DNA of 64,000 nt from Halorubrum vacuolatum (GTDB taxonomy: Archaea > Halobacteriota > Halobacteria > Halobacteriales > Haloferacaceae), in assembly GCF_900188065.1 (NCBI RefSeq), contig NZ_FZNQ01000006.1:62001-126000 (forward strand). The letters run 5' to 3'. A program made the position numbers and the translations under genes. Within the stretch, counting starts at the first letter, position 1. Each line of letters begins with the position of its first letter. The notes beneath the pieces are model-generated. The model did not search any database and was not told the origin of the DNA. It saw nothing but the letters and a program-made list of their open reading frames with translations. This document shows, piece by piece, positions 2,576 to 37,200 of the stretch.

Positions 2576-3310
2576 CTATATTGACAGCGACCAAACGAAC
2601 TCGACATACGCGACAAACAACGAGTAGAAAACCCAGAGGGCGCTAATGCAGAGAAATATTGGATAGGATACGTCTTTGAGATGCCTCCACGAAGTGCTCG
2701 AATAGACGGGCTTCTCTCGCACCGGGTCAATCCAACCGGGTAGATGTTGGATGATAGGCTCCGCGTGATTGTCGCCTACTACTGCTACGACCCGTCCTCC
2801 ATCCTTAGCTGCATCAGTGATCAATTCCGCCATCAGTTCGTTCCGACTATTATTAGTCCTAGCAGATTCATGAAAACGGAGAAACAATAATGGAACAAGT
2901 GCACTCCCGAGCAAAAGTGGGACCCCGAGGAGGTGGTTGCCTAATATTCCATAGAATGCAGAGATAGAAAATAATCCCAGAAACATAATCGCGGCAGCAA
3001 CCCTTGCAAGGCTGTGAGAGTTTTCGAGGACTGAAGCATCCGATTTACGGGTTTTCACAACTTCGCCATCTTGCGCTTTGGTGATATCTTCAAGGACAGA
3101 ACTGTCGGTTTGGAGAATTCGAAAGAACAGGTAGTTAGTGAGCATCATTACAAAGGCGTACCACTGTTGGGTCAGAGAATACTCAGCTTCATTCTCTGGG
3201 CCTTCCAGAATAAGATGGTCGACACCCTCAACCAGAAGCTCTCGTTCGTGGGCGAGATCACCCTTCGAGCTATGCAACTCGCCTTTGATAATAATCTCGC
3301 AATCAGTCAT
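2576..3310 (-). CDS. TraB/PrgY-like membrane protein (divergent)
   Basis: A 244-residue protein with both hallmark GxxH-type motifs of the TraB/PrgY/GumN superfamily. An N-terminal KGELHSSKGDLAHERELL is followed by a strand ending ILEGPE (the usual 'vELD/E' position), and a C-terminal VVAVVGDNHAEPI follows later. Hydrophobic segments occur around residues 50-67, 103-145 and 215-240. The fold resembles metal-dependent proteases (known in bacterial TIKI/GumN relatives) but the biochemical role in archaea is unproven. A second divergent member is at 21260-21880. It stands alone; an AT-rich TTTAAGTA element about 27 nt upstream suggests a leaderless start at 3310. Confidence 0.65.
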   Translation of the reverse strand: MTDCEIIIKGELHSSKGDLAHERELLVEGVDHLILEGPENEAEYSLTQQWYAFVMMLTNYLFFRILQTDSSVLEDITKAQDGEVVKTRKSDASVLENSHSLARVAAAIMFLGLFSISAFYGILGNHLLGVPLLLGSALVPLLFLRFHESARTNNSRNELMAELITDAAKDGGRVVAVVGDNHAEPIIQHLPGWIDPVREKPVYSSTSWRHLKDVSYPIFLCISALWVFYSLFVAYVEFVWSLSI

Positions 3311-3453
3311 TCACAGGGTTGATTCACCCGTTTTACTTAAATTTGCTTCTGTGGGAACAACCGCAGGGGTAGCTATCGAGGGCCAACCCTTTCAGTAAAC
3401 AAGTAGATCTACTGGAGAGTCATCAGATCATCTTTAACAAGAGTCACGGAAAC

Positions 3454-13057: not shown

Positions 13058-15169
13058 TCACCGCGTTGCCCGCCGACCGAATACGAACACGAGGATGGCG
13101 AGTAGGACGACACCTATTGAAGTTTCAAACACGGCGAGAACCTGACCCCACTGGTTGACTGGAGCGAAGTCGCCGTAGCCCAGCGTCGTGAACGTCAGCC
13201 CGCTGAAATAGAGACTCTCAAACAGTGTCGCCTCATACCCAGAGTTTGCGTGCTCAACAAGGCCGAACGCATAATAAACGAGGCCAAAGGCCAGAACGGT
13301 GACCGCGCCAGTCCCCAGCACGCGGGCGGGACTCTCACCGTACCGCGCAACGAGGGTCGGTACAAACGAGCGGACGGTCATCATCGTCTCGCCGTCGCGC
13401 CAGTACTTCCTTAATTGCACATCTTTGCGCCCGAGGAAGCACTCGCTTGCCAGCCCCGGCAGGCTGTTGTTGCGGGCGAGATTTTCCAGCGTACCGTACA
13501 CCTCGCCGGCTTTCTCCAGACTAACCGATCCGTCGCTCCCACGGTAGCGCGGGTCATAGGAGCAGTAGGGCTCCTGATCGCGGAAGGCCATTTTGACGCG
13601 CCGGAGTACACGCACCGGGACCGGAGAGCCATCGGGGTCGCGGCGGTTGTCGTCCCCGTCCAGCCAGAAGTCTGTCTCGCGGTTGATGCGGGCGTCGCCC
13701 AGCAGCGCGCCGTAGAGTTTCGCCCCAGCGAGATTCGCCCAGAGGAGTTCCGCGCGATTGAGGCGTGCACGCTCAAACGACGCGCCAGCGAGTTCCGCGC
13801 GGCTGAAGTTCGCACCGGTGAGGTTCGTGCCGTCAAATGAGGCCGTCGAGATGTTCTCAGTGCCCGTTACGTCGGCATGCTCGAAGTCCGCGCCTTCGAG
13901 TGTGGCGTCGGTGAACTTGGCGTCCGACGGGAAGCGGGTGTTGCTGAAGTCGATTCCATCTTGGAAAGTCACGTCGCTAAAATCCACATCACCCGCGAAC
14001 ACGAAGTCGAACTGTTGCTCTTCTTGGTCGGATTGTTCGATCCGAGTGGTCGAGTCGACCCCACCGCGAAACTCCAACGCACGGCGGAACGTCGCACCTG
14101 AAAAGTCCAGCGAGTGTTCATATACGTTCTTATCGGCATTGCCAGCAGGCACCGCCCCAATACCGAATCCAAACGCAACGTCGTCCCGGAAGTTTACGTC
14201 GGTGAGAACTACACTGGACGCGACATCGAACCGCGTGTTCAGAAACGAGAGGGGAGCGGCGACCGTCGCACCTTCGAACGAAATCCTACCCTCTCCGAAT
14301 GCCGCAGTATCGAACAACACCATACCTTCCCCGAAAGTCGCACTATCGAACAACACCCTACCTTCCCCGAACTCCGAACCCACGAACGACACCACGCCCT
14401 CCCCGAACTCCGCATTATTGAACGTAATCCTACCCCCGCCGAATTCCGCACTATTGAACGACACCCTACCTTCCCCGAACGCCGCCCTGCTGAACACCAC
14501 ATTACTTCCCCCGAACGTCGCATCAGAGAACGACACCTTGCCCCTCCCGAACTCCGCACCCCAGAAGGACACCTCGCCCTCCCCGAACTCCGAATCCGCG
14601 AACGACACCGTACCTTCTCCGAACTCCGCACCCCAGAACGACACTGTACCCTCTCTGAACTCCGCATGACGAAATGAAATCCACCCGAGCTCAGCGATCA
14701 CTTCCTCTTCGCCAGTTTCGAACCGCGCCTGCCTTGCGAGCACGTCGTGTTCGAAAACGGCGTTTTCGGCGTTCAGTCCGTGCGCGAATGTCGCGTGGTC
14801 GAGTCGAATAGGATGTTCGTCACCAGCATCTAGCGTCTCATTCTCGATGTCAAACGCTCCGAACGTCGCGCCGACGAACTCTTTATGACGGCGCGCCGCC
14901 TCCTCGTTGTCGACAGCACTCACTTCGTTGACAACCTCGACGAACCGTTCGCCCTCGTCCACGTCGTCGGGCATGTCCTCGGGGCTGGTGTGGAACGCGC
15001 AGTACTCCTCACCGTCGAGTGACTCGTGTGGACACTCCCAGACCTCCTGTTCCAGCCCCCGCCTATGCTGATGGTTGTCCAGCAACCAGTCGTCGGGATC
15101 GTCACCGTGCCAGTTCGACGGATCTTCTTTCCGTGCAACATAGTCGCACGTTCCCTCTGGGTCGGCCAT
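13058..15169 (-). CDS. Pentapeptide-repeat protein fused to a two-TM ion channel
   Basis: A 703-residue protein. Residues 1-60 hold a small Cys/His patch (CDYVARK, WECPHESLDGEEYCAFH). Residues about 90-510 are pentapeptide repeats, including a block of near-identical 14-residue units (AEFGEGTVSFWG-type) predicted to form a right-handed beta helix. The C-terminal 110 residues have two membrane helices around a pore loop with filter TTLGYGD, the Ion_trans_2 potassium-channel signature. Likely a membrane channel gated by, or tethered to, the beta-helix domain. The start at 15169 has a TATA box 28 nt upstream (leaderless). It is the sole gene of IS-ended cassette 2. G+C and codon use are richer than its A+T-rich neighbours, suggesting separate origin. 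Confidence 0.8.
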   Translation of the reverse strand: MADPEGTCDYVARKEDPSNWHGDDPDDWLLDNHQHRRGLEQEVWECPHESLDGEEYCAFHTSPEDMPDDVDEGERFVEVVNEVSAVDNEEAARRHKEFVGATFGAFDIENETLDAGDEHPIRLDHATFAHGLNAENAVFEHDVLARQARFETGEEEVIAELGWISFRHAEFREGTVSFWGAEFGEGTVSFADSEFGEGEVSFWGAEFGRGKVSFSDATFGGSNVVFSRAAFGEGRVSFNSAEFGGGRITFNNAEFGEGVVSFVGSEFGEGRVLFDSATFGEGMVLFDTAAFGEGRISFEGATVAAPLSFLNTRFDVASSVVLTDVNFRDDVAFGFGIGAVPAGNADKNVYEHSLDFSGATFRRALEFRGGVDSTTRIEQSDQEEQQFDFVFAGDVDFSDVTFQDGIDFSNTRFPSDAKFTDATLEGADFEHADVTGTENISTASFDGTNLTGANFSRAELAGASFERARLNRAELLWANLAGAKLYGALLGDARINRETDFWLDGDDNRRDPDGSPVPVRVLRRVKMAFRDQEPYCSYDPRYRGSDGSVSLEKAGEVYGTLENLARNNSLPGLASECFLGRKDVQLRKYWRDGETMMTVRSFVPTLVARYGESPARVLGTGAVTVLAFGLVYYAFGLVEHANSGYEATLFESLYFSGLTFTTLGYGDFAPVNQWGQVLAVFETSIGVVLLAILVFVFGRRATR
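14281..14680. repeat. 42-bp imperfect tandem repeats (14-residue units)
   Basis: About nine to ten units of roughly 42 bp, each carrying CTTCCCCGAA-like sequence, encode alternating (S/A)EFGEG-VSF units of the pentapeptide domain. Similarity at the DNA level is high enough for unequal recombination. Confidence 0.75.
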
Positions 15170-15492: not shown

Positions 15493-17013
15493 TTAAATAA
15501 CGTCTTTAAAGTCGCCAATTTTTTCCAGCATCTTCATCATATCGAGTTCACTTTTGTTTGGCCACCGCCGCTCACCAAACTCACAATCACTATTAGTGCA
15601 CATATATGAGCGCTGTGTATATCCCTCAAGATAGTATCGTCCGTTACTTATCAACATCTCATCACAGGAAGGACATTGCAACCGTATCAACGGACTAGCC
15701 GATTCAATGATATATGGTGAAAATTGATCGACATATTCCTTTTCTGTCTCTGATCTGGATCTCTTGGCGCTGTACTTTTCATTTATCTGAGCAACCACTT
15801 CTTGTACCTCATCGAACTTATCAGCTGATATCATAGCTAGCTGCTTGTCTTCATGATGTGGGTTTTCGGGATGATGCTGAAGATAATCAATTCGTAGTGT
15901 CGGTGAGCCCTTGTATACAGGGTTAGTCACGATTGACTTAATATCCTTTCCAGTTAGTTTGTCATCTACCAGTTGTGGAGTAAATTTAACCCTCGTTTTC
16001 GTATCAGTACTATTTTTTGCATCTTCATTACCTTCGTTGTCATCCGGACTCGCCACAACATATTTATTTGAATCTACAAAATCCTCAAGATTAGATATCT
16101 CCTGAAGCTCTTTTTTGAATATCTTATTAATTTCACGTGCTGTAGCTTCGTATCCACGCTTCTGTTTGAATACCTTAAAGATTTTTTTGATGATAGGTTT
16201 CCACTCATCTATCGGCTCAATCCATTCACCCATCGGTTTATACCCGAGAGGGATATGATGGCGAAACCATGCTCTCCATACTCTTTTCTCCAAAAATCCA
16301 TCAGCGGCAGATCTAACTGCAGACCTCGTGCGGGTCATCGTGCTAAATTCGGCCATCGTCGCTTGCATGATGGCCTGTAGTCGATCTTCCGGAACTTTCA
16401 GATCTAGTTCTTTGTTTCGACACAACAACTTTACATCGTAATCATTCCGAAGTTGGGTGATGAACATCAGCGTCTCAGGAACGGTTCTGCCGATTCGATC
16501 TATGGTGTCTACCAATAGATGGGTTACATCGTCACGCTGAGCAAGCCGACCAACTTTTTGTATGCCGTCTCGGTTGAAATCGGTCCCAGATCTACCTTCA
16601 TCTGTAATATCCTCTATGAGCCTTGCGTCTGCTCGGTTGTTAAGAACTGCTGTGAGTTCTTCTTTCTGTGAATCGAGAGATCGACCGTTCTCTTTTTGTT
16701 CATCTGTACTTACACGACGATACATTAGAATTCCTTCTCCACCCTGTTTTTGTGAATCAGTTACAGGTGGAGAATCCGAGAATTCGTACAGATTCGTCTG
16801 TGAAGACTGGGACAGGAGAGTAATGACTGCGACGAGAGGAAGGAAGATACTCGTTCGCCTATGTAAGCTCTGGCCAAGATTACTTATATAACGCCTGATA
16901 CGGAAAGCCAAGGCTTGTCGTATCCGACCTTTTATAAGTATATTGGGCCAACCGGGGTGCTCTGCGGCCGTCGCAAAACGGGCTCGTAAATCGTCTAACC
17001 AGCCCGCGATCAT
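15493..17013 (-). CDS. Large serine recombinase with a fused N-terminal membrane-like module
   Basis: A 506-residue site-specific recombinase. Residues about 97-250 form the catalytic resolvase domain, with MYRRVSTDEQ carrying the nucleophilic serine and DEGRSGTDFNR and DTIDRIGRT following. A recombinase domain (GYEATAREINKIFKK, region near residue 240) and a C-terminal zinc ribbon (CPSCDEML ... CTNSDCEFG, about 445-480) follow, the architecture of large serine integrases/transposases. The first 95 residues are unusual: a basic helix (GRIRQALAFRIRRYI) and a hydrophobic segment (IFLPLVAVITLLS). The ATG overlaps the stop of the upstream tyrosine recombinase by 4 nt (ATGA), so the two are translationally coupled. 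It likely cuts and joins DNA of the resident element. Confidence 0.85.
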   Translation of the reverse strand: MIAGWLDDLRARFATAAEHPGWPNILIKGRIRQALAFRIRRYISNLGQSLHRRTSIFLPLVAVITLLSQSSQTNLYEFSDSPPVTDSQKQGGEGILMYRRVSTDEQKENGRSLDSQKEELTAVLNNRADARLIEDITDEGRSGTDFNRDGIQKVGRLAQRDDVTHLLVDTIDRIGRTVPETLMFITQLRNDYDVKLLCRNKELDLKVPEDRLQAIMQATMAEFSTMTRTRSAVRSAADGFLEKRVWRAWFRHHIPLGYKPMGEWIEPIDEWKPIIKKIFKVFKQKRGYEATAREINKIFKKELQEISNLEDFVDSNKYVVASPDDNEGNEDAKNSTDTKTRVKFTPQLVDDKLTGKDIKSIVTNPVYKGSPTLRIDYLQHHPENPHHEDKQLAMISADKFDEVQEVVAQINEKYSAKRSRSETEKEYVDQFSPYIIESASPLIRLQCPSCDEMLISNGRYYLEGYTQRSYMCTNSDCEFGERRWPNKSELDMMKMLEKIGDFKDVI

Positions 17014-18140
17014 AGATAACCACCTCCACTCTCATCAGCAACACGGTCCAAAATTCGCCGGCGAGCACGGCACCGCTCTTCTTCTGTCGTTTCATCGTAG
17101 TGCTTGCGTATGGTATCTTCGCTAACATCGCAGCGTTCGCTCAGTACATCGAGTGGTATACCACGCCGGCGGCCCTCAGTAATGAATCCATGTTTGAGTG
17201 CGTGGGGTGAGCGGCTCGATGGGCATTTCGAGGCGTGGTCCATCGACTGTGCAGCCGAGCAAGAATCAGGATCACGATCATGCGGACAACCAGCACCGAT
17301 CACGCACGGTCGGCTCCACTGGTAGATGTACCGACGGATGGTAGATTTTGAGACCCGACCATGCCTCGTCGCTAAAAGAGGCTCTCGGTCACAGTCATCT
17401 GTTACGTCCGGTCGGGTCGTCTCGATATAATCAGTGACAACCTCAGCGTCACCCTTCGAGATAGCTACGTGACCTGCGCTCTTGGTCCCGTTTTTCAGTC
17501 TCGTGCCTTGATCTGGCCGATGGTGAAACTCAAGATATGGCTCATCAGTATCTAAGTGAGCGTCATCTACATCTAAGGCGACTAGGCACCCGGTGCGCCG
17601 CCCTGTACGCACGCCGAGCACCCATACTACGTGTGCGAGCGTGGCATACTCATATTTCTCCAGATAGCTGAGGGTGAGCCGAACTCGCTCAGGATCCAGA
17701 TCCACGTCTCGTACGCCATCACCTGCTGAGAGCTCCGGGACTGGTACCGAGTCGCTCAGTCCGGGTTTGACGGCCTCAATATCTTCGAGATAGGAGAGCC
17801 AGCTTCGAAGCCGATACATCTCATCACGCATCGTCTTGTTTGATAGCTCACTGACTCGCTCGCACGATTCGTACCGCCGCCACGTGGCGATGTCGTTGAT
17901 CAAGCGACCGTCAAGGTCTCGCAAATCGTCGATCTCCTCTTGTTCCAAAAAGTCCAAGATTCGACCTAATTTGGATGCGTAAGTTTCGAGGGTCTTCTCC
18001 GTCAGCTCTGGACGTCTCGCGTCTAAATAACGCTCAAGACCCTGCTTAGGCGTACAGGGCTTGAGATTCGGTCCCAGCTTAGAGCGGAGTAACTCAAAAA
18101 TCTCGTCTTCATCCAGATCACCAATTGAGGCTCCGCTCAT
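17010..18140 (-). CDS. Tyrosine recombinase/integrase with an altered HxxR motif
   Basis: A 376-residue phage-type integrase. The N-terminal SAM-like core-binding domain (RYLDARRPELTEKTLETYASKL) is followed by the catalytic domain with RTGRRTG (first Arg) and HHRPDQGTRLKNG. The C-terminal box reads SPHALKHG, so the usual HxxR is HxxK, and the nucleophile is in IRKHYDETT. A Cys/His patch (CVIGAGCPHDRDPDSC) interrupts the domain as in other haloarchaeal XerC/D-like proteins. The ATG at 18140 is chosen over an upstream ATG at 18317, because the family N-terminus begins near MSGASIGDLDEDE and the added 59 residues look untranslated. Activity is uncertain because of the Arg-to-Lys change. Divergent from the operon at 18383. 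Confidence 0.85.
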   Translation of the reverse strand: MSGASIGDLDEDEIFELLRSKLGPNLKPCTPKQGLERYLDARRPELTEKTLETYASKLGRILDFLEQEEIDDLRDLDGRLINDIATWRRYESCERVSELSNKTMRDEMYRLRSWLSYLEDIEAVKPGLSDSVPVPELSAGDGVRDVDLDPERVRLTLSYLEKYEYATLAHVVWVLGVRTGRRTGCLVALDVDDAHLDTDEPYLEFHHRPDQGTRLKNGTKSAGHVAISKGDAEVVTDYIETTRPDVTDDCDREPLLATRHGRVSKSTIRRYIYQWSRPCVIGAGCPHDRDPDSCSAAQSMDHASKCPSSRSPHALKHGFITEGRRRGIPLDVLSERCDVSEDTIRKHYDETTEEERCRARRRILDRVADESGGGYL

Positions 18141-18342: not shown

Positions 18343-18350
18343 TATATAAA
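18343..18350 (+). promoter_or_regulatory. TATA box of the RpoB''-like operon
   Basis: TATATAAA is centred about 37 nt before ATG 18383, placing transcription start near 18373, downstream of the GTG at 18365. This decides for ATG 18383 as the translation start of the first gene. Confidence 0.6.
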
Positions 18351-18382
18351 GAGAGCCTGAAACTGTGATTTTAGACAGAACT

Positions 18383-19579
18383 ATGGATGCCACAGATCGA
18401 CTGGATTGCCGTCAGTACAACCTTTCCGCATTACAGTTGGCACATCTTCTTGATGGCGACATTGGGGATCGTAACCCAAAAAATCTAGAAAAAGAGATAC
18501 AAGATACAGCGATACAGCTCGATAAACGTCTGCAGTATCTAATTGAAGATATTTGCATCCTCTATGAACAAGGCTATTTGAATAAAGAAAATTGGCCGGT
18601 AGGTTGGGATCAGCTTAGCGATCTTAACCGTAATGACAATCTCTACGATCCTCCACTCGGGATAGTTGGGGCTTCTCAGGAAACTATGGATTACATGTCT
18701 ATGGCAATGCATTTGGGCCATGTCTGTCGACTCCTCTACTCCGCAACGGCACCACAGTTCGATTCAGAAATGGCCGCGCTTGGGTTTTTGATCGGGCTAA
18801 GAGGTGGATGGCTGAGTGAGGATTGGAGGGCTGAGTCATCTCAGAAATTATTGAAAGTGCTTCCTGAGGAGGGCCTGAAAGCAGACATCTTCGAGATGCC
18901 ATCATCAGATACAAGCAAGGGCCTTGCTGACGTTCTCCGTCAGGTTGATGATAGTTTTACCAAGGAAGATATCGTGCAGGACGAGGATATCGAGCTACGG
19001 AACCGTTTAGAGGAATCTAATCTCACTCTTACTCCAACAGTATTTGAGTATGCAGAGGAAATGCTCGTAACAGCAGATTTCCCTGCCACATCACCCGTAA
19101 TAGAGGGTGTAGTAGACCAAACAACGGCTAATCACGAGTTAAAAAAAGCAGAAAGGCTAGCTGACCAGTTAATACAGGATATCGACTCCCTCGTACATCA
19201 TAATTATAGGGGTGGCGAAGCGATCCAAGTCTTCTGGGCCATCCACACCACCGAGTCCGTTGAGGATAATGACGATATCGTAGGTTCTGTTGACACAAAA
19301 AAGCACCAAGTTAGTAAGCTAATGACTGATTTGTGTGGCCGCGAGTCACCATGGGACCTACGCCCAGTAATTGTGGACGGGCAATTTGGAATAAAGAAGA
19401 CTAATTATGGAAAGCTGATCGCCCAGTTGCTGACCGCAGAAAGTGACGACAAAAAATATGCTGTTCCACCTGATAATGAGATATATGATGCTTGTCATGC
19501 AGCCATTCTTGGTGAATCCGACGATGTACGTCAAGAGTTGATGAATGAGGTACTCTCGGAGGTAGAAATAGATACCTAA
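18383..19579 (+). CDS. Unknown protein in operon with an RpoB'' paralogue
   Basis: A 398-residue protein that I do not recognise. It is mainly helical and acidic: an N-terminal segment SALQLAHLLDGDIGDR, a 'hydrophobic with Gly' block near residues 135-150 (AALGFLIGLRGGWLS), and a C-terminal alpha/beta part (RPVIVDGQFGIKKTNYGKL, then YDACHAAILGE). No membrane segment or catalytic signature is obvious. It is the first gene of an operon and its stop lies 26 nt before the RpoB''-like ORF, so a partner role with that subunit is a reasonable inference. Composition is A+T-rich, like the neighbouring accessory DNA. Confidence 0.65.
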   Translation: MDATDRLDCRQYNLSALQLAHLLDGDIGDRNPKNLEKEIQDTAIQLDKRLQYLIEDICILYEQGYLNKENWPVGWDQLSDLNRNDNLYDPPLGIVGASQETMDYMSMAMHLGHVCRLLYSATAPQFDSEMAALGFLIGLRGGWLSEDWRAESSQKLLKVLPEEGLKADIFEMPSSDTSKGLADVLRQVDDSFTKEDIVQDEDIELRNRLEESNLTLTPTVFEYAEEMLVTADFPATSPVIEGVVDQTTANHELKKAERLADQLIQDIDSLVHHNYRGGEAIQVFWAIHTTESVEDNDDIVGSVDTKKHQVSKLMTDLCGRESPWDLRPVIVDGQFGIKKTNYGKLIAQLLTAESDDKKYAVPPDNEIYDACHAAILGESDDVRQELMNEVLSEVEIDT

Positions 19580-19605
19580 AGCCTCAATATCACTCCACAT
19601 ATCTA

Positions 19606-21168
19606 ATGCATCGTGAAAAACGTCAGAGGCTCGCTCAGGCATATCTCAGTCGGCAAAACGTTGCCGCACACCATCTCCATTCATTCAATCGGTTTTTAGA
19701 GGCTGGTCTACAGACGGTTGTAAAGCAGAAGGGGCCGATTCATACGAGTATAGGAAATCAAGATACTGACGCTACCTCTGGCAACGAATCACATGAAGAG
19801 CCTCTCGTAGCTAAGATAACTGAAATTCGGGTGGAGTCACCTCAATTCCGAGAGAGCGACGGAAAGGTAACTACACTATATCCTCAGGAAGCTAGGCATC
19901 GGAATCTTACCTATGCTGCACCGATGTTTCTAACCATTCAATTAATCATAGGTGGTAATCAAGAACCAAAATCTATTTTCAAACGGCAGGAGGTAAAAGT
20001 CGGGAAGTTACCGATTATGGTCCGTTCTCATAGTTGCAACCTAGCCGGCTTATCCCCATCGGAGCGTATAAATAAGAACGAGGATCCGCTTGACCCCGGT
20101 GGGTACTTTATTGTGAACGGTAATGAGCGCGTTTTGATTAGTACGGAGGACCTTGCCTCCAACCGAATTCTGACCGCCTTTGCTCAGCGATCCGGAACTA
20201 AGATTCCAGAAGCAACGACGTATTCGCGCCGACGGGGATATAGGAATATCACCCGGGTTGTTTACGACAAGAACGACCAGCTGGCCGTGTCCTTTCCGGG
20301 TGTTTCCGGGATGGTCTCATTCACTACAGCTGTCTGTGCGTTGGGTATGGAGACAGATGACGATATTTACCAGCACTTTTCTGACGATGAGAAAATCATT
20401 CGAATATTGTTTAGCTCTCTTGAAACCCGACAAGCGAGAGATAGAGATGCTGCTTTGGTGAAAATAGGCTCAAACCTCGCACCGAAGCAGTCTGCAGAGC
20501 AACAGAGGGAGAAAGCTCTCGAAGTCTTTGACCAACGGCTTCTCCCACACCTCACGGAATCCAGAGATCAACAAGCAAGAGTCCGATATTCCAAGGCCAT
20601 TCACCTCTGTCGGATGGCCGAGGCCTGCCTCAATTTATATCTTGGCCGAAAAGAGCCCGAGGACAAAGATCACTACAAAAACCAGAGGCTACGAGTAGCA
20701 GGCGACTTGATGAGGGAACAATTCCGTGCGGTTCTAAACCGATTTGGTCGAGATCTAAAATATCAAATTGAGCGAACTTACAAACGGAACCGGAAACTGT
20801 CGATACCGAATCTGATCCAATCTGATCTGATCGGGAACCGTCTGGAAGCTGCCCTTGCGACAGGGAACTGGGTAGGCGGCCGATCCGGTGTCTCGCAGTT
20901 TGTTGATCGGACGAATATGCCAAGTCTGCTCAGCCAACTCAGACGAGTGCAGAGCCCGCTATCACGCGGGAGGCCGCACTTTGATGCACGTGATCTGCAT
21001 GCTACGCACTGGGGTCGTATCTGTCCAAGCGAGACGCCTGAGGGACCAAATTGTGGATTAGTGAAGCATCTCGCGCAGGCAACCGACCTTTCTACTACCG
21101 GTATTGACGAGAGAATTCTGAAAGATGAGTTGGTATCGATGGGTGTTCGGCAGACGGATCCACACTAA
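19606..21168 (+). CDS. Second, divergent RNA polymerase subunit B'' (N-terminal half of beta)
   Basis: A full-length (520-residue) homologue of archaeal RNA polymerase subunit B''. It keeps the landmarks of the family in order: an N-terminal FNRFLEAGLQTVV, LYPQEARHRNLTY, PGGYFIVNGNERVLIS with EDLASN, YRNITRV in the lobe, ATGNWVGGRSGVSQ with DRTNM, LRRVQSPLSR, and DLHATHWGRICPSETPEGPNCGLVKH near the C-terminus (fork loop 2 and the rifampicin-pocket region). The core around the active centre is almost unchanged while the lobe and protrusion regions diverge. No partner RpoB', A' or A'' gene is present. The gene lies in accessory DNA beside recombinases, with A+T-rich codons, so it is an extra copy, not the housekeeping gene. 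It could replace the normal subunit in the enzyme; effect unknown. Confidence 0.9.
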   Translation: MHREKRQRLAQAYLSRQNVAAHHLHSFNRFLEAGLQTVVKQKGPIHTSIGNQDTDATSGNESHEEPLVAKITEIRVESPQFRESDGKVTTLYPQEARHRNLTYAAPMFLTIQLIIGGNQEPKSIFKRQEVKVGKLPIMVRSHSCNLAGLSPSERINKNEDPLDPGGYFIVNGNERVLISTEDLASNRILTAFAQRSGTKIPEATTYSRRRGYRNITRVVYDKNDQLAVSFPGVSGMVSFTTAVCALGMETDDDIYQHFSDDEKIIRILFSSLETRQARDRDAALVKIGSNLAPKQSAEQQREKALEVFDQRLLPHLTESRDQQARVRYSKAIHLCRMAEACLNLYLGRKEPEDKDHYKNQRLRVAGDLMREQFRAVLNRFGRDLKYQIERTYKRNRKLSIPNLIQSDLIGNRLEAALATGNWVGGRSGVSQFVDRTNMPSLLSQLRRVQSPLSRGRPHFDARDLHATHWGRICPSETPEGPNCGLVKHLAQATDLSTTGIDERILKDELVSMGVRQTDPH

Positions 21169-21259: not shown

Positions 21260-21880
21260 ATGTCTGATAGTGAGTTGAATCTGCTCCTTCTGGGTGGTGT
21301 ACACATCAAAGATTCGAGCGCCCGATTTGAACTAACTAAACAGACTTTTGATCACGTGGATACGGTCTTTATTGAGTCAGTCACAAAAAATGAGTCTTCT
21401 GTTACAAAGCTCATTAGTGGGCTAAGAGCTCCGCTGATTGTTCCTATTTGCTTATTTGCTCTGAAAGCTATGAATTATTATACCAAATTAACTGGGAAAG
21501 GGGATGGTGAGTTGCGAAGGGACATAGTAGATGAGTTTGATGCAGATGTTATTGAAATAGATCATAGCTTTTTTCCGATAATTAACGAGTCCCCATGGTT
21601 TTGGCCACTCTCAAACTACGTAGCTTTGTTGAGTTCGATGCTGTCGTACATATGGATCGGATCGATGAGCGTGTCTCTACTTACACCCGTGTCTCTACTG
21701 CTTCTTTATCTCGCTTCTACTCTATACGGTCGGGATGCTAAGATGGCACTTGATATTGAACAGTACGCACAAGCAAAATCTGGTAATGCGGTCGCAATTA
21801 TCGGTAGTCATCATCAAACTGGAGTGGTTAGTAAATTAGCGAATAGCTCTATCGTACGAATCGTGTCAAAAAATAATTGA
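21260..21880 (+). CDS. TraB/PrgY-like membrane protein, second copy
   Basis: A 206-residue protein sharing the TraB-type frame with 2576-3310. Residues 5-40 read LNLLLLGGVHIKDSSARFEL followed by VDTVFIES. The C-terminal GNAVAIIGSHHQTGVVSKL corresponds to the second motif. Hydrophobic segments lie at about residues 55-70 and 115-150. It is clearly related to the first copy in organisation but only weakly in sequence. It begins 92 nt after the RpoB''-like gene and probably has its own promoter (AATATTAAAT about 35 nt upstream). Proposed role: a membrane-associated GumN/TraB-type hydrolase or signalling protein; unproven. Confidence 0.65.
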   Translation: MSDSELNLLLLGGVHIKDSSARFELTKQTFDHVDTVFIESVTKNESSVTKLISGLRAPLIVPICLFALKAMNYYTKLTGKGDGELRRDIVDEFDADVIEIDHSFFPIINESPWFWPLSNYVALLSSMLSYIWIGSMSVSLLTPVSLLLLYLASTLYGRDAKMALDIEQYAQAKSGNAVAIIGSHHQTGVVSKLANSSIVRIVSKNN

Positions 21881-22363: not shown

Positions 22364-25300
22364 TTAAATGGGGAGATGGCTTTCTAAAAATTCCGTGTCC
22401 ATTTTATTGTTTTCTGCTGCAAACTGATCGGCTATGTCTAATGCTGTCTGTAGCGCCTCCTCTCCTGCATCTTCCGCACACTCGTAAAGGTAAGACCGAT
22501 GGTCTTCCTGACTTGTTCGAGCAATAGATGACCATTCACCACAGGTAACAGCATCAACTAATTCATCATATATCTTTATTGTCACAACAGGGCAGTCAGC
22601 TGCTTGCTCTGCTAACCATCCCTCAATGCGCCGCCAGTGGTGCGTGTGTTTAGCAACGAATGGGAGTGATTGAAGAATTCGGCTTTCCTCGTCTTTTAGG
22701 GTTGTTGTCGTTGCACTTCGAACACAGTCAAGGAAATACCTGATCTCTGTATCATGATCTTCTGTGTCAGGGTCAACCACATTTAACCGATACTCCCAGA
22801 GATCTCGGATTTTGCTCCACTGGTCCTCAACTTCCTCGTTACCCATTGACGATGCCAACGTTGAGGCCAGTTCTTTTACCGCCTCACGATCAGCAATATG
22901 GTAAAAGTGGTTGATCAGGCTTTCGTCATCACTGAGGTCGTCGTTTTCAAACAAGTAGATCGAAGCAACGTGAGCAGTGGTTGACCGAGCCTCAATTTGA
23001 TATGCAGCATCTTTATCGGCATCAAGCAGGCTGAGCGCGTGGAAATAGTATTCGCGGAACAATTCGCTGTCCCAGTATCGATTATACGCCGTATAGGAAT
23101 TCCATGCGGCAATAAACTGTCGTTGAGCTGGCTGGTCAGTCCCCCGTGTGAAAATATCGTCCAAGTGATCTTTAATGAACTGTGTATTAAGCCTATACAG
23201 GGTGCCAAATCGGCGACCAATCACTGACCGAACAGCAAGGGACTGGTCCTCAAGGATACGCTCCTCGATGGGGTCAAAAAACAGCTCGTCTAGCTGTGTT
23301 TCAGTTTGTTCATCTTTCCATGCAAGATAAGTGATATATGCGTTCACTGCCATCGGACGGACGGAATTAATCGCAACCGTGGCCGGATCGCCGTGGCCAG
23401 CCATTCCTTCAGCAGGCTGGTCACGCTCAGGCACGGGATCTGGGTCAGTAGACAAGGTAGACAAAACGTCTTCGATCTGTGATTCAAAACCATCCGGGAA
23501 CGCAGTCGTATCGGCTGCAATCCCTCGATTAATCAGCATCGCGAGGTTGGTTTTCGAACGCTCACTCCAAGCGGTCGGTGATGTCGTAATTGCTTGTCCG
23601 AGTGCAAGAATTGAGTCCCATGGGAAGGTCTCGCCATCATCAATAAGATCTCGAAATGCACGGAAAGCAGCTTCAGCGTACTGTGAATGAGCGTCTTCCA
23701 ACACCGAAATTTCACGCGCATATCGCTGCGGATCCTCCTTGATCAATTCACCGAGCTGACTTGAGAAACCCCTGTGACTGCGTTCCTCAAGCTGAACAGT
23801 TTCACCTGTGTTCCACCTCTCTGATTCGGGTGGTTCCCATTTGACTGCTGTCGTAAGGACTTCTTCGGCAGGCTGGTCCCGAAGTTTGTCTGTCTTTTCT
23901 GGGCCGTATTGTCGGACCACACCACCATGCATCCGTACTGGCTGCCGGCCCCGTGATGGTGGTCGGTCTGGCTCACCGTGCTTTTCGAGCAGTTCGTCAA
24001 GTTGCGCTATATACGGATCGTCTAGGTAATCGCGAATTAGATAAAACCGATCACGCTTCCACTTTTCCCGTATTCGTTGTTCGAAATAGCTTGCTGATTC
24101 TTCCTCTCGTGCGGCTAATCGTTCAGCACGATTTTCCACATCGTCGGCATACGGGCCATTTTCGATGATCCCACAAACCCGCTGCTGTGCTCTATGATCA
24201 AGGTGCTCATAGCCCTTCTCGAAAGCAAGATAAAACTCATAATGGGACTGCTGCTCGTGATACTTTTGCTCGTTCGTTACTTCGTCGCTAATTTGTGTGA
24301 CAAATGCTTCCGGAAATTCACTGAGGACGTACAAACCTATCCGCTGAAGGACCGTATGTTGATCTAACAACCATTCTACAAATTCAGTTTTCTGGTCGCT
24401 TGTAGGGTTTATATTGACCCACGCAGTCATCGCTTGGACGGAGTAATCCAGCAAAATCTCTGCAAGCGATCCTCGCTTATTTTCAACAAAGTTTAAATCA
24501 GCAAATGAGATCTGATCTGCAACAGTGCCATACTTTTCTTCCTCTTCTGTCCGCTGTTGGAGTGCTGTGATGAGATTTGTTGTAAACATTCCCAAGAGCT
24601 CCCCACCGCGTTCCTGAAGTAATTCATCAAAGTGTTCGTCAAACAGCTCCGTCAGATTGTACCGGATCATACCTTGGTCGACATCCAACTGGTTTCCTTC
24701 TCGTGGCATCAGCATCACATCAAGAATTTCAAGTGCCACATCGTACTCGTCATGCTCAATAAGATACGAAGCCAGTCGTATTGCATAACTGCCAAGGTAA
24801 CCGTACGCTTCGTCGTCCTGTACCCAAGTTAGAGCCTGTTGTCCGACGACAGCGGCATTATTTACTGGAAGATCACGACTAAGTGAAAGGAAAAATCGTT
24901 GCGTTCGAAGATTATCTGTTTCAAGCTCTTGAGCAACTTGTTGTACAAATGATGGCCGTGTCTCGGCGGTCCGGCCCAAGTAAGTTATGAGGTTATTATG
25001 TGGGTCGGTGAACTTGCCTTCTTCGAAAAGAAACTCGACCCACGAAGGATCAAGGTCTCTATCGTAGAAGTGATTCGCCATATTACAGCTTGTTTCAACG
25101 CTTGACAGTATTGCTTTCACGATGGTGTCTGGTAACTCAGCGGGATCATGTTGCTTGAATTCATCAAGAAGAATCGATGAGGGATAAAATCGGAGTCCTT
25201 CGTCGGAGATGGTTGTCTCAATCAGATCCGTGAGGAGGTCCTGCTCTTCTTCGAGAGTGCTTTCTGAAAGGTGGGATATCCAAGAGGTGACATGGTTGAT

Positions 25301-26410
25301 TTCGATTTCGAAGGTACGATGGTCATCAACGAGTTTGATGAGTTTCTCAGCATGATAAACACATGCACCAACGTGGGCAGTCTCAGTATGATCAGACCGT
25401 GCCTCCAGAAAGTCTCGAAAGACATCATGGACTTTGAAGATCTGAAGACCATCCGCATTGGTGCCCAGTGTCTGCACAACGGTACGCGTATTGAGTGAAT
25501 CAAGTATTTCGCCCACCTTGACACGATCAAATCCATGAGCACGGGAGGCTACACGCGTGCAGAGTTCTTCATTGAGTTCCTCAAGTGAAGCCGTAGCTAG
25601 GAGAAGCCGTCGCTCATCAGCCGTAAGAAATTCAAAATATCGCCGCTTGATTTCTTTTTGAATCTTCTTTTCAGGGATATCTAACAGATCATCATCACTG
25701 TTCGCTTCTGTCTGCAATCCGAGATACAGGGGGTGACCGCCTAATTGGTCATGAACTGCATGTGCGTCCTCGGTCGTAACGTCTGTGGCATTTTGGAGAA
25801 AAGTGATCGTCTGTTCCTCGGTAAACATAGATAGCGAAACCGTCGCATCTATTTCATCTAAGGCAAGCCGACCGGCAGTGATAAGAATAACATTGGACGG
25901 CAGTTCCTCAGCCGCTTCCTGAATCGCACCCTGCACCTTCCGCTTGTCCTCGCTCAATTCATGGACATCATCTACACAGACAATCAATGATTGATCCTCA
26001 GGAAACAAATCACTCAAACCTAACAAAGAATCTTTGTAACCAAACTGTGCACGAGACGCTTCCGCCTCGTGTGATTCAAATGAGACACCCCCGCCACCGA
26101 TTGGTGTACTTACACTCAAACCAGCAAACTTCCGCCCCTCTTCCTTCTTTCCCTCAGGCAACGCATTAAAAAGTGCACGGCAGAGTTTCCGAAAAAGCTC
26201 ATCTAAATTATGATTCGCCTGAATATTCCGCCGATCTACCCGAATCTCACCATCCAACTCCTCCTCAATATGGTCAAGCACTGTTGTCTTCCCCACACCC
26301 GGTTCACCGACGATATGAACCACTTCCTTATTATGCTCAATGTATTGAGCGATGATCTCCTCCTCAGGCCGAGATATTGCATCTGACGAGGAAACACCGT
26401 TTTCTGTCAT
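22364..26410 (-). CDS. STAND-type NTPase with long helical-repeat C-terminus
   Basis: A protein of about 1,350 residues. Residues 15-330 are a P-loop STAND/AAA_16-like module: Walker A GEPGVGKTT (near residue 35), Walker B LIVCVDDVHE (near 145), a sensor strand VILITAGR and a winged-helix end (VHDVFRDFLEAR). The remaining 1,000 residues are alpha-helical solenoid without an obvious effector domain. Such proteins bind ATP and oligomerise on sensing a ligand; many bacterial relatives (Avs-type) are antiviral. That role is inferred here from architecture and the mobile setting. The ATG at 26410 is preferred over the GTG at 26425, because a CACATAAAC TATA-like box would place transcription start near 26425. 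It is monocistronic. Confidence 0.8.
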   Translation of the reverse strand: MTENGVSSSDAISRPEEEIIAQYIEHNKEVVHIVGEPGVGKTTVLDHIEEELDGEIRVDRRNIQANHNLDELFRKLCRALFNALPEGKKEEGRKFAGLSVSTPIGGGGVSFESHEAEASRAQFGYKDSLLGLSDLFPEDQSLIVCVDDVHELSEDKRKVQGAIQEAAEELPSNVILITAGRLALDEIDATVSLSMFTEEQTITFLQNATDVTTEDAHAVHDQLGGHPLYLGLQTEANSDDDLLDIPEKKIQKEIKRRYFEFLTADERRLLLATASLEELNEELCTRVASRAHGFDRVKVGEILDSLNTRTVVQTLGTNADGLQIFKVHDVFRDFLEARSDHTETAHVGACVYHAEKLIKLVDDHRTFEIEINHVTSWISHLSESTLEEEQDLLTDLIETTISDEGLRFYPSSILLDEFKQHDPAELPDTIVKAILSSVETSCNMANHFYDRDLDPSWVEFLFEEGKFTDPHNNLITYLGRTAETRPSFVQQVAQELETDNLRTQRFFLSLSRDLPVNNAAVVGQQALTWVQDDEAYGYLGSYAIRLASYLIEHDEYDVALEILDVMLMPREGNQLDVDQGMIRYNLTELFDEHFDELLQERGGELLGMFTTNLITALQQRTEEEEKYGTVADQISFADLNFVENKRGSLAEILLDYSVQAMTAWVNINPTSDQKTEFVEWLLDQHTVLQRIGLYVLSEFPEAFVTQISDEVTNEQKYHEQQSHYEFYLAFEKGYEHLDHRAQQRVCGIIENGPYADDVENRAERLAAREEESASYFEQRIREKWKRDRFYLIRDYLDDPYIAQLDELLEKHGEPDRPPSRGRQPVRMHGGVVRQYGPEKTDKLRDQPAEEVLTTAVKWEPPESERWNTGETVQLEERSHRGFSSQLGELIKEDPQRYAREISVLEDAHSQYAEAAFRAFRDLIDDGETFPWDSILALGQAITTSPTAWSERSKTNLAMLINRGIAADTTAFPDGFESQIEDVLSTLSTDPDPVPERDQPAEGMAGHGDPATVAINSVRPMAVNAYITYLAWKDEQTETQLDELFFDPIEERILEDQSLAVRSVIGRRFGTLYRLNTQFIKDHLDDIFTRGTDQPAQRQFIAAWNSYTAYNRYWDSELFREYYFHALSLLDADKDAAYQIEARSTTAHVASIYLFENDDLSDDESLINHFYHIADREAVKELASTLASSMGNEEVEDQWSKIRDLWEYRLNVVDPDTEDHDTEIRYFLDCVRSATTTTLKDEESRILQSLPFVAKHTHHWRRIEGWLAEQAADCPVVTIKIYDELVDAVTCGEWSSIARTSQEDHRSYLYECAEDAGEEALQTALDIADQFAAENNKMDTEFLESHLPI

Positions 26411-26469
26411 TGCACGACGATTCACAAGTAGACTTTTTCAATGTTTATGTGAAGCACATCCGTGTTAGA

Positions 26470-32883: not shown

Positions 32884-33894
32884 TCAGAGGTCGTCTAAGT
32901 AGTCTCGCCGTTGCTCCATTTTCTCTTCCTCTGTCCGCGAATCGTAGTGCACTGAGAGCACTTTTTCGCTCACGTTGGCGCGATCACCGACTGCCTTCAT
33001 CGGCCATCCGTTCTGCAGTGCGTGTGTGATGCCGCCTCTCCGCACTGCGTGAGGACTTACAGCTGATGGACATGCAGACGCTGAGTCATACGAGGTCGCA
33101 TCACATTCGTCCAGATCTCGTCCGTGCGGACATTCTCGTGAGACCTCACAGGGTCGAGTGTATCGATAACAGTCGCCGCGTAGCGTCGTCGTATGAGCTC
33201 GTCCTTCTGGAGTCGAAATCAACGGCTTCCGTCCGTGCTCATCCGTCACGGCTGGACGAGTATGTTCTAACCAGTCGTCCAGAAGCTCACACACCTCATC
33301 AGATAGGGCAACCAATCGTTCCCCTCGTTTTTGATTCTTCAGCGTCGTCTCTGACTCTGGCCGATGGACTACCTGTAACGATTGCTTGACGGAATCGTAA
33401 TCACCGCAATCAAGCCCATGAATTTCTCCGACACGCATCATGGTGTGCCACATCAGCGTAAGTGCGACGTGTGGTCGGGATGCGTACTCGTACTTGTTGA
33501 GATGAGAAAGGACCTGCTCGGCTCGATCAGTATCCAGCATATCATCGCGGACGTTGTCGTTCCCACTCAGTGTGGGTGACAACACTTTCGTGTGGAGATC
33601 GAGTTCGACGGCATCAATTGACTCCAACCATTTAACGAACACCCGTAGTGTGTCCATCTGCGTCTTTTCACTCGCTGGCGAGAGACCACCTTCCATGCGT
33701 CGCCACATTCTGAATTCATGTAATTGGCGACCGGACAGCTCGTTCAGATTCGTGATCTCGGCATCGTTACACCACCGGACGAAGTGTCCAAGCCGCGACC
33801 GATGCGAATAGATCGTCGCTTGCGAGACACTATTTTCTCGATCAGCGAGGTACAGTTCGAGCGCGTGTTCGGGGTCTATGGGTTCCAAACTCAT
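32884..33894 (-). CDS. Tyrosine recombinase/integrase (intact XerC/D-like)
   Basis: A 336-residue integrase with a core-binding domain (ELYLADRENSVSQATIYSHRSRL) and a catalytic domain bearing MMRVGEIHGL (Arg I), HRPESETTLKNQKRGERL, VSPHAVRRGGITHAL (HxxR) and the nucleophile in LSVHYDSRTEEE. A Cys/His patch (CEVSRECPHGRDLDEC) is present as in related haloarchaeal enzymes. All catalytic residues are retained, unlike the paralogue at 17010-18140. It likely integrates or excises part of this island. Two palindromes adjoin its start codon. Confidence 0.9.
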   Translation of the reverse strand: MSLEPIDPEHALELYLADRENSVSQATIYSHRSRLGHFVRWCNDAEITNLNELSGRQLHEFRMWRRMEGGLSPASEKTQMDTLRVFVKWLESIDAVELDLHTKVLSPTLSGNDNVRDDMLDTDRAEQVLSHLNKYEYASRPHVALTLMWHTMMRVGEIHGLDCGDYDSVKQSLQVVHRPESETTLKNQKRGERLVALSDEVCELLDDWLEHTRPAVTDEHGRKPLISTPEGRAHTTTLRGDCYRYTRPCEVSRECPHGRDLDECDATSYDSASACPSAVSPHAVRRGGITHALQNGWPMKAVGDRANVSEKVLSVHYDSRTEEEKMEQRRDYLDDL

Positions 33895-33933: not shown

Positions 33934-34270
33934 GACGGCCGATTTCAGCCGCCTCACGCCTCAGAGGTTGATCCGTTCGACAGTCGAACAAGCGCTCGTC
34001 GCGCCCGTACGCTTCTAATTGGAGTACAGCGACGAGATAGACGCGATGATAGTAAGAGGTGCACGCGTTCGTTCGACCAGTGACCGTCTACGGGTACATT
34101 GGTGGGGTTCGCGTACCTCCCAACTCGGGTGGAAAAGAGATGATCAGCCGGACACTGACGGGAGCGGTGCTCAGATCCGGTGTGAATCGTGGGACGGTAC
34201 GTTCTCGATAGAATCTACGCCCCAAAATACTCATCTCGCCTTTCAATCAATTGTCTGAACACCGACTGTG
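33934..34270. other. Intergenic stretch between integrase and surface-protein operon
   Basis: No gene or RNA was recognised here; an 80-codon plus-strand frame has no supporting features. It separates the divergent-ended integrase promoter from the 3' end of the surface protein gene. Confidence 0.4.
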
Positions 34271-37200
34271 CTACTCGGAGACCCGTGTGCGTGCTGCGAT
34301 GAGTGCTGTGGCGAGCAGTGCGATGAGTGCGACGACCACACCGAATCCGGGTATTTGCTCTTCGACGGCCGGCTCCTCTTCGGGCGTGTCGGCTACGCTA
34401 TCGTCGCTGTCGTCGCTATCGTCCGCCGTGTCTTCCTCGGGATCGGTGTCGTCCGTTCCAATAGTCAGCGTGTCGGTGTACGTATCGTCAGCAGTCGTGA
34501 GACGGTACGTGTATTCTCCCTCGCTTAACGCGGAGATATCAACGTCGTTGAACTCAACCGTTACCTGTCCATCTGAGCCGAGCGTCAACTCCTCCTCGGC
34601 AACGGTTTCGCCATCGATCTCCAGTTCGATCGTCTGGCCGTCGGACGGTCCACCCGTATTCGTGATCGTCGCCGTGACATCGATCGGTGTACTCGCGTCC
34701 TCCTGACCGCTCACTTCGGGCGCGGAGATCTCGAACTGTTCATCGCCAGGGGTGGGAGCGCCGGCGCCGCCACCACCACCGCCGCTGGCACCAGCGTCGG
34801 CGCCGTCGTCGTCATCAGATTCTGTGTCCTCCTCTTCGGATTCATCTTCTTGTGCGTCCTCCTCTTCGGATTCATCTTCTTGTGCGTCCTCAACGGATAT
34901 TGTTTCCGTGGTGGTGACGTCGTTGCCGGCCTGATCGACGACCTGCAATTCGACGCTAAAGGTCTCATCAGGCTGCAGATCATCGACGTGCACCTCGGTC
35001 TCCTCGCCGGTAATCTGCACGTCCGTTCGATCGTCACTGAGATCAACGTCGACGCTCGTCTCCGAGACGTCGATCGCGGATATCACCGGGGAGTACTCGA
35101 AGGTGAGCGTCACGTCTTCATCATCGATATCGAGGTCGGTACCGGGATCAACGGTCGTGTCGTCGATCGATGGTGGCTGATCATCCATCCCACCGGGCGC
35201 GAGCTGGCTGAAGCCGTCCACCTCGACGACGAGTTCGTCATCGACGATCTCGGGTTCAATCACCTCGTAGTCTTCCTCACCCTCCGGTGAGTAGAAGAAG
35301 ACGAGGTCCTCATCATCGATGCCCTCGATATCGATGTCAGCGAGTGGAACGCTCACGGTCGCGTCCTCGAGTTCGTCTTCGTCGAGGCCAATGTCGGCGA
35401 CATCGATGAACTCGTCCGTGATCTGGTCGGGTTCAACGGATGTTCCGGCGGGCGCGCTGGACGTCTGTCCGACCGACGCACTTCGCTCCTCATTCCCGTC
35501 GGCGTCATCGCTCGCTGAGAGAGCGAACGAGCCGTCAGTCGAGTCGGGCTCGACGGTCGCCTCGTTGTTCTCATCGAGTGCATAGCTAGTGACTGATGTG
35601 GTCAGCTCGTAGGTATCAGCGTTGCCGATCTCATCTTCGGCCTCCACCTCGATCGTGAAGGTAGTGTCTTCATCATCGAGAGTTGTCCCGTCGAATTCGA
35701 TCTCGAACTCATCACCCTCATCGGTCGGTGTGGATGGCGATCGATCCTCGGTGGTTCCATCGGCTTCTGCTTCGATGTCGATCTCGTCGATCGTGACGTC
35801 CTCATCGGCCTCGATCGTGAGCGTGGCATCAACTTCACCGAGGTCAGTCACGCGCGGCTGGATATCCGGGGCGGTCGTATCGACCGTCACGGTGGCGTCT
35901 TCATCTTCGAGTTCTGCGACGTTCCCAGCTTCGTCCTGCGCGGAAATGATCGCATTGTACTCACCATCGCCGACGAGGTCATCGACATCGATCGTCGTTT
36001 CAACGTCACCTTCCGCGTCGGCGTCAGTGAATTCTTCCCCGATAGCGAAGAAAGTAAACCCGGAGGCCAGACCGAGATTGACGACCTCAACATCACTGTT
36101 GACACCCTCAACATCGGCACTGACAGTAACCTCATCGTTTGTCAGGTCCGTATCGAGTTGGAGATTCTCGATCGTCGGTGGGGAGTTGTCGACCTCGAAC
36201 GGCTCGGTTTCGACTTGTTCTTCCTGACCGTCTCCACCGAATGCGGTCACTCTGAGGCGGTACTCCCCGTCATCGACCGGTTCGTCGTCCTCATCGATGG
36301 CGGTGTAGAAGAGGTCGGTGACGTCATCCTCGGCGTCGAAGGTGGACGTACGAACGACTTCGTCGTCCTCGTTCAGCACCTCCGTTTCGAAGGACTCCGC
36401 GACATCACTGTTGAGTTCGACCGTGACATCAAGCGGCTGGTTCGTGCTGATGAGGTCTGGCCCGGAAGCGAGCTGCAGATCGATCTCGTCATCCGGCACG
36501 AAGTCGCTCTCGACCTCGAAATCACTTTGCAGATTGCGGACAGTGCCGAGCCGCTCATGGATACGTTCGCCCGCTACTTCCTCTTCGAACATCGATATAC
36601 TGGCACTGTACTCCCCGCTTTCAATCTCGGAGACATCAACGGTGAATTCGAACTCGTCGTCCCCGTCACTATGTTCAACTTCCTGCTCAAGGACGGGTAG
36701 CGGATCTTCACCAACCAACCGGAAGGTGACAAACCAGTCTTCATCAACTTCCTCATCTCGTGGCGCTGTGACTGTTATTTCGTCTTCCGTCCCATCTTGT
36801 TCGATATCGCCAACATAATTCACCCCAATAAGGCGCTCCTCACTCGTATCTACTCGGTCACCATCTTCAACAAGAGCAAGTTCAAATTCGTTGAACGTGT
36901 CACCACTGCCGGTGAAGACATCATCATCACCCTCGACTGTGATGTTTATATCCTCACCGTCTTCATCTGGTGTTATCATTCCGACTCGCGGATCGACACG
37001 GATCTCACCAAGACCGTCGTAAATACTCAGCCGAATCGCCTCAACGTCGAATGTTTTCTCATCCTCCTCGGGAATGATCTCAATGGTACGGTCAGTATCT
37101 GTATTCGTGACCTCGATCGTGCGGTCGGCATCACCACCGAATGAGAAGGTGTCTTCACCCTCGGGCGCTGCATGAAGAACTTCCGCGGTGGTAGACGTTC

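What the first reader, a model, noticed from the sequence alone, without database searches (positions are those of the whole stretch)
18343..21168. Accessory second RNA polymerase subunit B'' in an operon with an unknown partner
Seen: a full-length 520-residue RpoB'' homologue with intact fork-loop and rifampicin-pocket blocks but a diverged lobe, in A+T-rich accessory DNA beside recombinases, 26 nt after an unrecognised 398-residue gene and sharing its TATA box. Known: haloarchaea normally carry one rpoB2 in the rpoH-B2-B1-A1-A2 cluster. Inferred: a mobile element supplies an alternative subunit that could be swapped into the host enzyme, giving resistance to a polymerase-targeting inhibitor or element-specific transcription, with the upstream protein as assembly factor, toxin or regulator.
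Basis: partly seen in the sequence, partly recalled or inferred. Interest (0 to 1): 0.88.

Follow-up and report, generated by a model that had tools for sequence, protein, structure and literature searches.

The report
Spare polymerase subunit on mobile element
A salt-loving archaeon carries, on a 50-kb mobile DNA element that also holds antiviral genes, a second and heavily altered copy of one piece of its RNA polymerase, which might be swapped into the cell's only transcription enzyme to change or protect it.

Summary
Window 19606-21168 is an intact 520-aa RpoB'', additional to the host's own rpoB2, which sits in a complete rpoB2-B1-A1-A2 cluster (51% identical). No close relative was found in 392 genomes of the order, all 170 held of the family, or viral and plasmid records.

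New facts. The gene is cargo of a roughly 50.7-kb integrative element in a tRNA-Arg(CCG) gene; attR is window 33995-34008, beside integrase 32884-33894. The element also carries Hma defence genes, a Dsr1-like STAND NTPase and a TFB-like factor. The copy evolves very fast (end branch 3.44, median 0.041) yet conservatively. Its lobe is disproportionately diverged. Three residues otherwise invariant in 60 homologues are changed at rifampicin cluster I, including the E. coli H526 equivalent. It is basic (net +14) where host copies are acidic (-17 to -32).

The 398-aa 'partner' is not specific to B'': its relatives recur beside integrases (12 of 25 loci) and never with rpoB. Assembly-factor or toxin readings lose support.

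Best reading, unproven: an exchangeable subunit giving an altered, perhaps inhibitor-resistant polymerase, comparable to actinomycete rpoB(R)/rpoB2. It is a singleton, so conservation cannot show function.

The parts
19606..21168 (+). accessory rpoB'' (520 aa): protrusion (20-185, 364-430), lobe (186-363), fork (431-493)
   Evidence: NF007175 6e-183; Pfam Rpb2_1/2/3; second copy in own genome 51% identical
18383..19579 (+). 398-aa orphan protein upstream of B'' (404 aa from GTG 18365); member of a sporadic, integrase-linked haloarchaeal family
   Evidence: no Pfam/NCBIfam/PHROG/PADLOC hit; relatives
18343..18350 (+). TATA-like box TATATAAA upstream of the 398-aa gene
   Evidence: read in sequence; no expression data
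17010..18137 (-). tyrosine integrase 'a', divergent from the 398-aa gene
   Evidence: Pfam Phage_int_SAM_1 and Phage_integrase, weak; PHROG 1 integrase 8e-19; same pair in L057 and L058
15493..17013 (-). serine recombinase
   Evidence: Pfam Resolvase 6.5e-20
21260..21880 (+). 206-aa membrane-like protein downstream of B''; TraB/TIKI-like by eye only
   Evidence: no library hit
22364..26425 (-). 1353-aa STAND-type NTPase resembling defence protein Dsr1
   Evidence: Pfam AAA_16 3e-11; PADLOC Dsr1 2.2e-23
32884..33894 (-). tyrosine integrase 'b' of the element, next to attR; 79-86% identical to integrases of two other elements
33995..34008 (.). attR: CTCGTCGCGCCCGT, repeats the 3' end of tRNA-Arg(CCG) (contig C47 45281-45353, left of the window); the element spans C47 45341-96008
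   Evidence: related integrase/att sequences follow the same tRNA in other genomes of the genus

Best explanation
The gene encodes an exchangeable RNA polymerase subunit B'' carried as cargo of a tRNA-Arg-integrated element. SHOWN: an extra, full-length, strongly but conservatively diverged B'' beside a complete host rpo cluster, with no second B' gene in the genome. INFERRED: when expressed it competes with host B'' and assembles with host B', A', A'' and the small subunits, giving a minority polymerase with an altered lobe, an altered rifampicin-cluster-I loop and a far more basic surface. INFERRED and weaker: the benefit is that this polymerase still works when the normal one is blocked (by a virus-coded inhibitor or an antimicrobial), or behaves differently on promoters, as the duplicated rpoB(R)/rpoB2 of actinomycetes does. 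The 398-aa gene upstream is an element gene, not its dedicated partner.
For: All B'' domains present, no stop, score far above the equivalog cut-off. Constraint retained: 140 of 182 positions invariant across 61 B'' sequences of the phylum are kept against about 35% identity at the other positions; replacements are conservative (mean BLOSUM62 0.00 against -1.23 +/- 0.09 for random; 80 replacements are residues seen in homologues against 42 +/- 5 expected). Lone B'' only: no second B' in the genome, so any polymerase role must use host subunits. Changes concentrate in the lobe (1.9x) and, within the fork, in rif cluster I (9/18 against 6/53 positions, p=0.0014; invariant losses 3/7 against 2/34, p=0.028). 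The E. coli H526 and S531 equivalents are both changed, the two sites changed in Nonomuraea rpoB(R) and Nocardia rpoB2 and linked there to rifamycin and sorangicin resistance (PMC5431353). Defence genes share the element.
Against: It is a singleton: no relative with which to test conserved function. 42 positions invariant in the other B'' are lost, several non-conservatively (G158N, P185S, R220Y, R244C), and the haloarchaeal C-terminal GIPGI is missing, so assembly may fail. Net charge +14 in a salt-in cell is unexplained. The rif-cluster-I loop also varies naturally between haloarchaea and methanogens, and the S531-equivalent position is variable, so clustering there is weak evidence. No expression or phenotype data.
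Confidence: 0.42

Rival explanations
1. Element-specific transcription: the altered B'', perhaps with the TFB-like factor on the same element, makes a polymerase that prefers element promoters.
For: A 256-aa TFB-like protein with TFIIB repeats lies on the same element about 20 kb away. Lobe and protrusion surfaces are strongly altered and more basic.
Against: Haloarchaea commonly carry many TFBs (own knowledge). The TFB-like gene is not adjacent. No distinct promoter motif was sought or shown on the element.
Confidence: 0.17
2. Dominant-negative or decoy subunit: it enters assembly but poisons or sequesters transcription, or binds a virus-coded polymerase inhibitor, as a defence or element-control device.
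For: The element carries Hma genes, a Dsr1-like STAND NTPase and a VakA-like kinase. Loss of 23% of otherwise invariant residues fits impaired activity. Paralogues turned inhibitors exist in archaea (TFS4, PMC5715097, listed).
Against: The fork keeps 88% of invariant positions, more than a mere decoy would need. No regulatory partner was identified.
Confidence: 0.17
3. A passenger on the way to decay: a captured B'' with little or no function that happens to be still open.
For: A single occurrence, a huge branch (3.44), loss of invariant residues and of acidic surface, low GC3 (0.48 against 0.87 for the host copy).
Against: About 250 replacements without a stop in 520 codons, conservative replacements and a graded site-wise constraint pattern need long purifying selection.
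Confidence: 0.17
4. Exapted stand-alone nucleic-acid-binding protein built from the B'' fold and no longer part of polymerase.
For: Net charge +14, pI 9.45, against -17 to -32 for 42 haloarchaeal B''; protrusion and lobe are most affected.
Against: The fork, which packs near the catalytic centre, is the best-conserved domain (75% identity to host).
Confidence: 0.07

Closest known systems
Haloarchaeal RNA polymerase subunit B'' (rpoB2; NCBIfam NF007175)
   Same: Same domain set, same split point after the fork, 51% identity.
   Different: Not in the rpo cluster; on a mobile element; basic; lobe and rif cluster I altered; lacks the GIPGI C-terminus.
Duplicated rpoB in actinomycetes: Nonomuraea gerenzanensis rpoB(R) and Nocardia farcinica rpoB2 (PMC5431353)
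   Same: A second beta-type gene beside a normal one; changes concentrated in lobe and fork; the E. coli H526 and S531 equivalents substituted.
   Different: Those are whole bacterial beta subunits, with described resistance and, for rpoB(R), few described changes; here only the N-terminal half (B''), archaeal, half its residues changed, no phenotype known.
Second lone B'' in another haloarchaeal genome (G265, L066:8404-9987)
   Same: A lone extra B'' without B'.
   Different: 86% identical to its cluster copy, acidic, in 68% GC chromosome, rif cluster I almost unchanged; absent from the six other genomes of its genus.
tRNA-integrated archaeal elements (integrase beside the att site)
   Same: Integration at a tRNA 3' end, integrase beside attR.
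   Different: Carries an RNA polymerase core subunit as cargo.

Membership tests
RNA polymerase subunit B'' (NF007175) | Score above the curated equivalog cut-off over the full length | tested here: met
   608.8 against 355 bits, model positions 2-491 of 496
RNA polymerase subunit B'' (NF007175) | Gene in the rpoH-B2-B1-A1-A2 cluster | tested here: not met
   The cluster carries the other copy; this one is on an element. This bears on orthology, not on fold.
RNA polymerase subunit B'' (NF007175) | Residues invariant in the phylum's B'' | tested here: inconclusive
   140 of 182 kept; fork 36/41, lobe 42/63
RNA polymerase subunit B'' (NF007175) | Assembles into RNA polymerase | not testable with these tools
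   Needs copurification or reconstitution
Actinomycete-type resistant duplicate rpoB | Coexists with a wild-type copy | tested here: met
Actinomycete-type resistant duplicate rpoB | Substitution at the E. coli H526 equivalent | tested here: met
   Q444 where 60 of 60 other B'' compared have H
Actinomycete-type resistant duplicate rpoB | Deletion in the lobe's hypervariable region | tested here: not met
   The lobe is diverged but without a comparable deletion (alignment)
Actinomycete-type resistant duplicate rpoB | Confers resistance to a polymerase inhibitor | not testable with these tools
   No phenotype data
tRNA-integrated genetic element | Direct repeat of the tRNA 3' end at the far end beside an integrase | tested here: met
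   14-bp perfect repeat at C47 45341 and 95995 = window 33995, 100 bp beyond the start of integrase b
Conserved operon of B'' with the 398-aa gene | Pair recurs in other genomes | tested here: not met
   25 further loci of the 398-aa family read, none with rpoB seen beside it; accessory B'' not found elsewhere

The most novel reading that the evidence does not exclude
A mobile element carries a replacement for one core subunit of the host's multisubunit RNA polymerase and, after integration, re-equips the enzyme, so that the polymerase escapes a virus-coded or antimicrobial inhibitor or changes promoter choice: element-supplied core-polymerase swapping in archaea.
Probability: 0.3. Interest if true: 0.88.

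Novelty: new variant of a known kind. Interest (0 to 1): 0.62.

Why it matters
Archaea are thought to run on one RNA polymerase whose diversity comes from multiple TBP and TFB factors. A mobile, fast-evolving core subunit would mean that the core itself can be exchanged by horizontal transfer. The split B''/B' design of haloarchaea makes half of beta swappable as a small gene, so the idea is directly testable in a genetically tractable haloarchaeon.

Tried and rejected
(3) The 84,980-species scan with B'' gave only a Pacearchaeota rpoB (34%); its exact 8-residue patterns limit its reach. (4) Plasmid and phage records: only bacterial rpoB. (5) A dedicated B''/398-aa operon: rejected (see membership test). 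(6) Recent duplication from the host's own genus: the free tree puts the gene on the stem of all haloarchaeal B'', but holding it with its own genus is not rejected (AU p=0.155), so the origin stays open because of the long branch. (7) PDB profile search and Pfam for the 398-aa family: nothing significant. (8) Papers: no report of a mobile archaeal polymerase core subunit found in six searches of the held library; absence there is not proof. (9) The bacterial sigma-70-type promoter scan is not applicable to archaea.

Full report
OBSERVATION. The 520-codon frame at 19606-21168 is a complete RpoB'' (NF007175, 6e-183; Rpb2 domains 1, 2 and 3). It is extra: the genome's other copy lies on contig C54 in the expected cluster rpoB2-B1-A1-A2-nusA-rps12-rps7, and B' occurs only once in the genome. 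The 398-aa frame begins at 18383 (ATG) and ends 26 nt before B''.

RARITY. In 392 genomes of the order a B'' was found in 386, but nothing closer to the window's copy than the native ones. The same holds for all 170 held genomes of the family at a threshold that native copies do not reach and for 80 genomes drawn across the phylum. Viral, phage and plasmid collections gave no archaeal relative. The sets overlap and are not a complete census. One other genome (G265) has a lone second B'' (L066), 86% identical to its cluster copy, and the six other genomes of its genus lack it. Lone B'' duplication is therefore rare but not unique, while the window's extreme form is so far unique.

EVOLUTION. 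Identity of the copy to haloarchaeal B'' is 50.6% on average, to other Halobacteriota 47.2%; haloarchaea differ from those others by only 36% and among themselves by at most 18%. In the tree the copy attaches to the haloarchaeal stem with an end branch of 3.44 against a median of 0.041. Its place on the haloarchaeal side is well supported (100/99), but an origin inside its own genus is not rejected (AU p=0.155); long-branch effects leave its age open. GC3 is 0.48 against 0.87 for the host copy, which fits arrival from the A+T-rich mobile pool without amelioration (inference).

CONSTRAINT. Of 182 positions invariant in 61 other B'' sequences, 140 are kept (fork 36/41, lobe 42/63). Replacements are conservative against random expectation. 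This pattern, without a stop in 520 codons, is what purifying selection on a B''-like function leaves; it does not prove present function. Relative to haloarchaea-methanogen differences the lobe is over-diverged 1.9x, protrusion-a 1.09x.

RIFAMPICIN CLUSTER. Aligned with E. coli beta (locus L151), the copy has Q444 at H526, Q449 at S531, F432 at F514 and N437 at N519. The H, L and D that it replaces at 444, 432 and 437 are invariant in 60 of 60 other B'' compared. Differences from the host are concentrated there within the fork (9/18 against 6/53, Fisher p=0.0014; invariant losses 3/7 against 2/34, p=0.028). The p-values are not corrected for choosing the segment, and the loop also varies between haloarchaea and methanogens. 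The parallel with Nonomuraea rpoB(R) and Nocardia rpoB2 (H526N, S531Y; lobe changes in rpoB(R); PMC5431353) is suggestive only. Archaeal polymerases are not rifampicin targets (own knowledge), so any inhibitor would be another one.

CHARGE. B'' from 42 haloarchaeal loci carry net charges of -32 to -17, other Halobacteriota -9 or lower; this copy carries +14 (pI 9.45). The shift lies in protrusion-a (-2 against -21) and lobe (+6 against -9). Most other proteins of the element are acidic, so a non-halophilic origin of the element does not explain it. I have no proven explanation; tighter DNA contact is one possibility.

THE ELEMENT. The A+T-rich region lies in 65-70% GC DNA. Contig C47 45281-45353 is tRNA-Arg(CCG); its last 13 bases plus T (CTCGTCGCGCCCGT) recur at C47 95995 = window 33995, 100 bp beyond the start of integrase b. 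Integrase b is 79-86% identical to integrases of two other elements, and DNA homology with those loci ends at this point. Other genomes of the genus hold related integrase and attachment sequences downstream of the same tRNA. The element is thus about 50.7 kb, C47 45341-96008, and includes window 1-34008. Its left part, outside the window, has HmaA, HmaB and HmaC, a VakA/cytidylate-kinase-like protein, a TFB-like protein and a serine recombinase. In the window it has a Dsr1-like STAND NTPase 1.2 kb from B''. It is a defence-bearing integrative element, probably a mosaic.

THE 'PARTNER'. No library or PDB match. A profile finds relatives in 23 of 293 haloarchaeal genomes; this genome has three members (the window, C41 and C52). 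In 12 of 25 other loci a tyrosine recombinase lies within 1.7 kb (no formal background rate was measured). In L057 and L058 the order integrase a, divergent 398-aa relative, cargo, integrase b is the same as in the window. None has an rpoB. The gene most likely belongs to the element's integration or control functions, and B'' is cargo placed behind it, possibly cotranscribed (inference).

MECHANISM. Because only B'' is supplied, a polymerase role requires host B', A' and A''. I commit to an exchangeable subunit (0.42 overall), with protection from an inhibitor as the likeliest use given the defence neighbours and the altered lobe and rif loop. Element-specific transcription, a decoy or dominant-negative role, and decay are each about 0.17. 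What is shown is the gene, its context, its constraint and its oddities; assembly, expression and benefit are inferred.

VERDICT. Real, rare, mobile and odd; a new variant of a known kind (duplicate beta-type subunits), with a testable and potentially striking claim, held back by being a single case.

Noticed in passing
L072:6639-17097 (contig C47 46639-57097, left of the window): Hma-type defence system (HmaA helicase, HmaB methylase, HmaC ATPase) with an extra DUF7680 gene between B and C, on the same element.
   Followed up: partly
L073:2358-3128 and 3121-4071: TFB-like protein of 256 aa whose gene overlaps the start of a serine recombinase gene, just left of the window.
   Followed up: partly
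L073:1061-1609: Cytidylate-kinase-like protein matching VakA and the kinase part of viperin-kinase fusions (PADLOC), but no viperin seen nearby; may be a plain CMP kinase paralogue.
   Followed up: no
L066:8404-9987 (genome G265): An independent lone second rpoB'' in core-like chromosome, 86% identical to its cluster copy, with an insertion of five residues and 24 changes at otherwise invariant haloarchaeal positions.
   Followed up: partly
window 22364-26425: Dsr1-like STAND NTPase with an AAA_16 P-loop N-terminus; the Dsr1 match covers only its C-terminal half.
   Followed up: no
window 2576-3310 and 21260-21880: Two proteins with TraB/TIKI-like motifs by eye; library support is absent or not significant.
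   Followed up: no
window 34271-43307: Two very large, very acidic proteins (1548 and 1478 aa, net -430 and -236), the first with PGF-CTERM, just beyond attR, in DNA that is still A+T-rich: possibly a second, adjacent island.
   Followed up: no
window 13058-15169: 703-aa protein with pentapeptide repeats fused to a C-terminal ion-channel domain.
   Followed up: no
L187 and L184 (tRNA-Arg locus in other genomes of the genus): The tRNA-Arg(CCG) site holds related integrase and att sequences, in L187 in more than one copy: an integration hotspot.
   Followed up: partly
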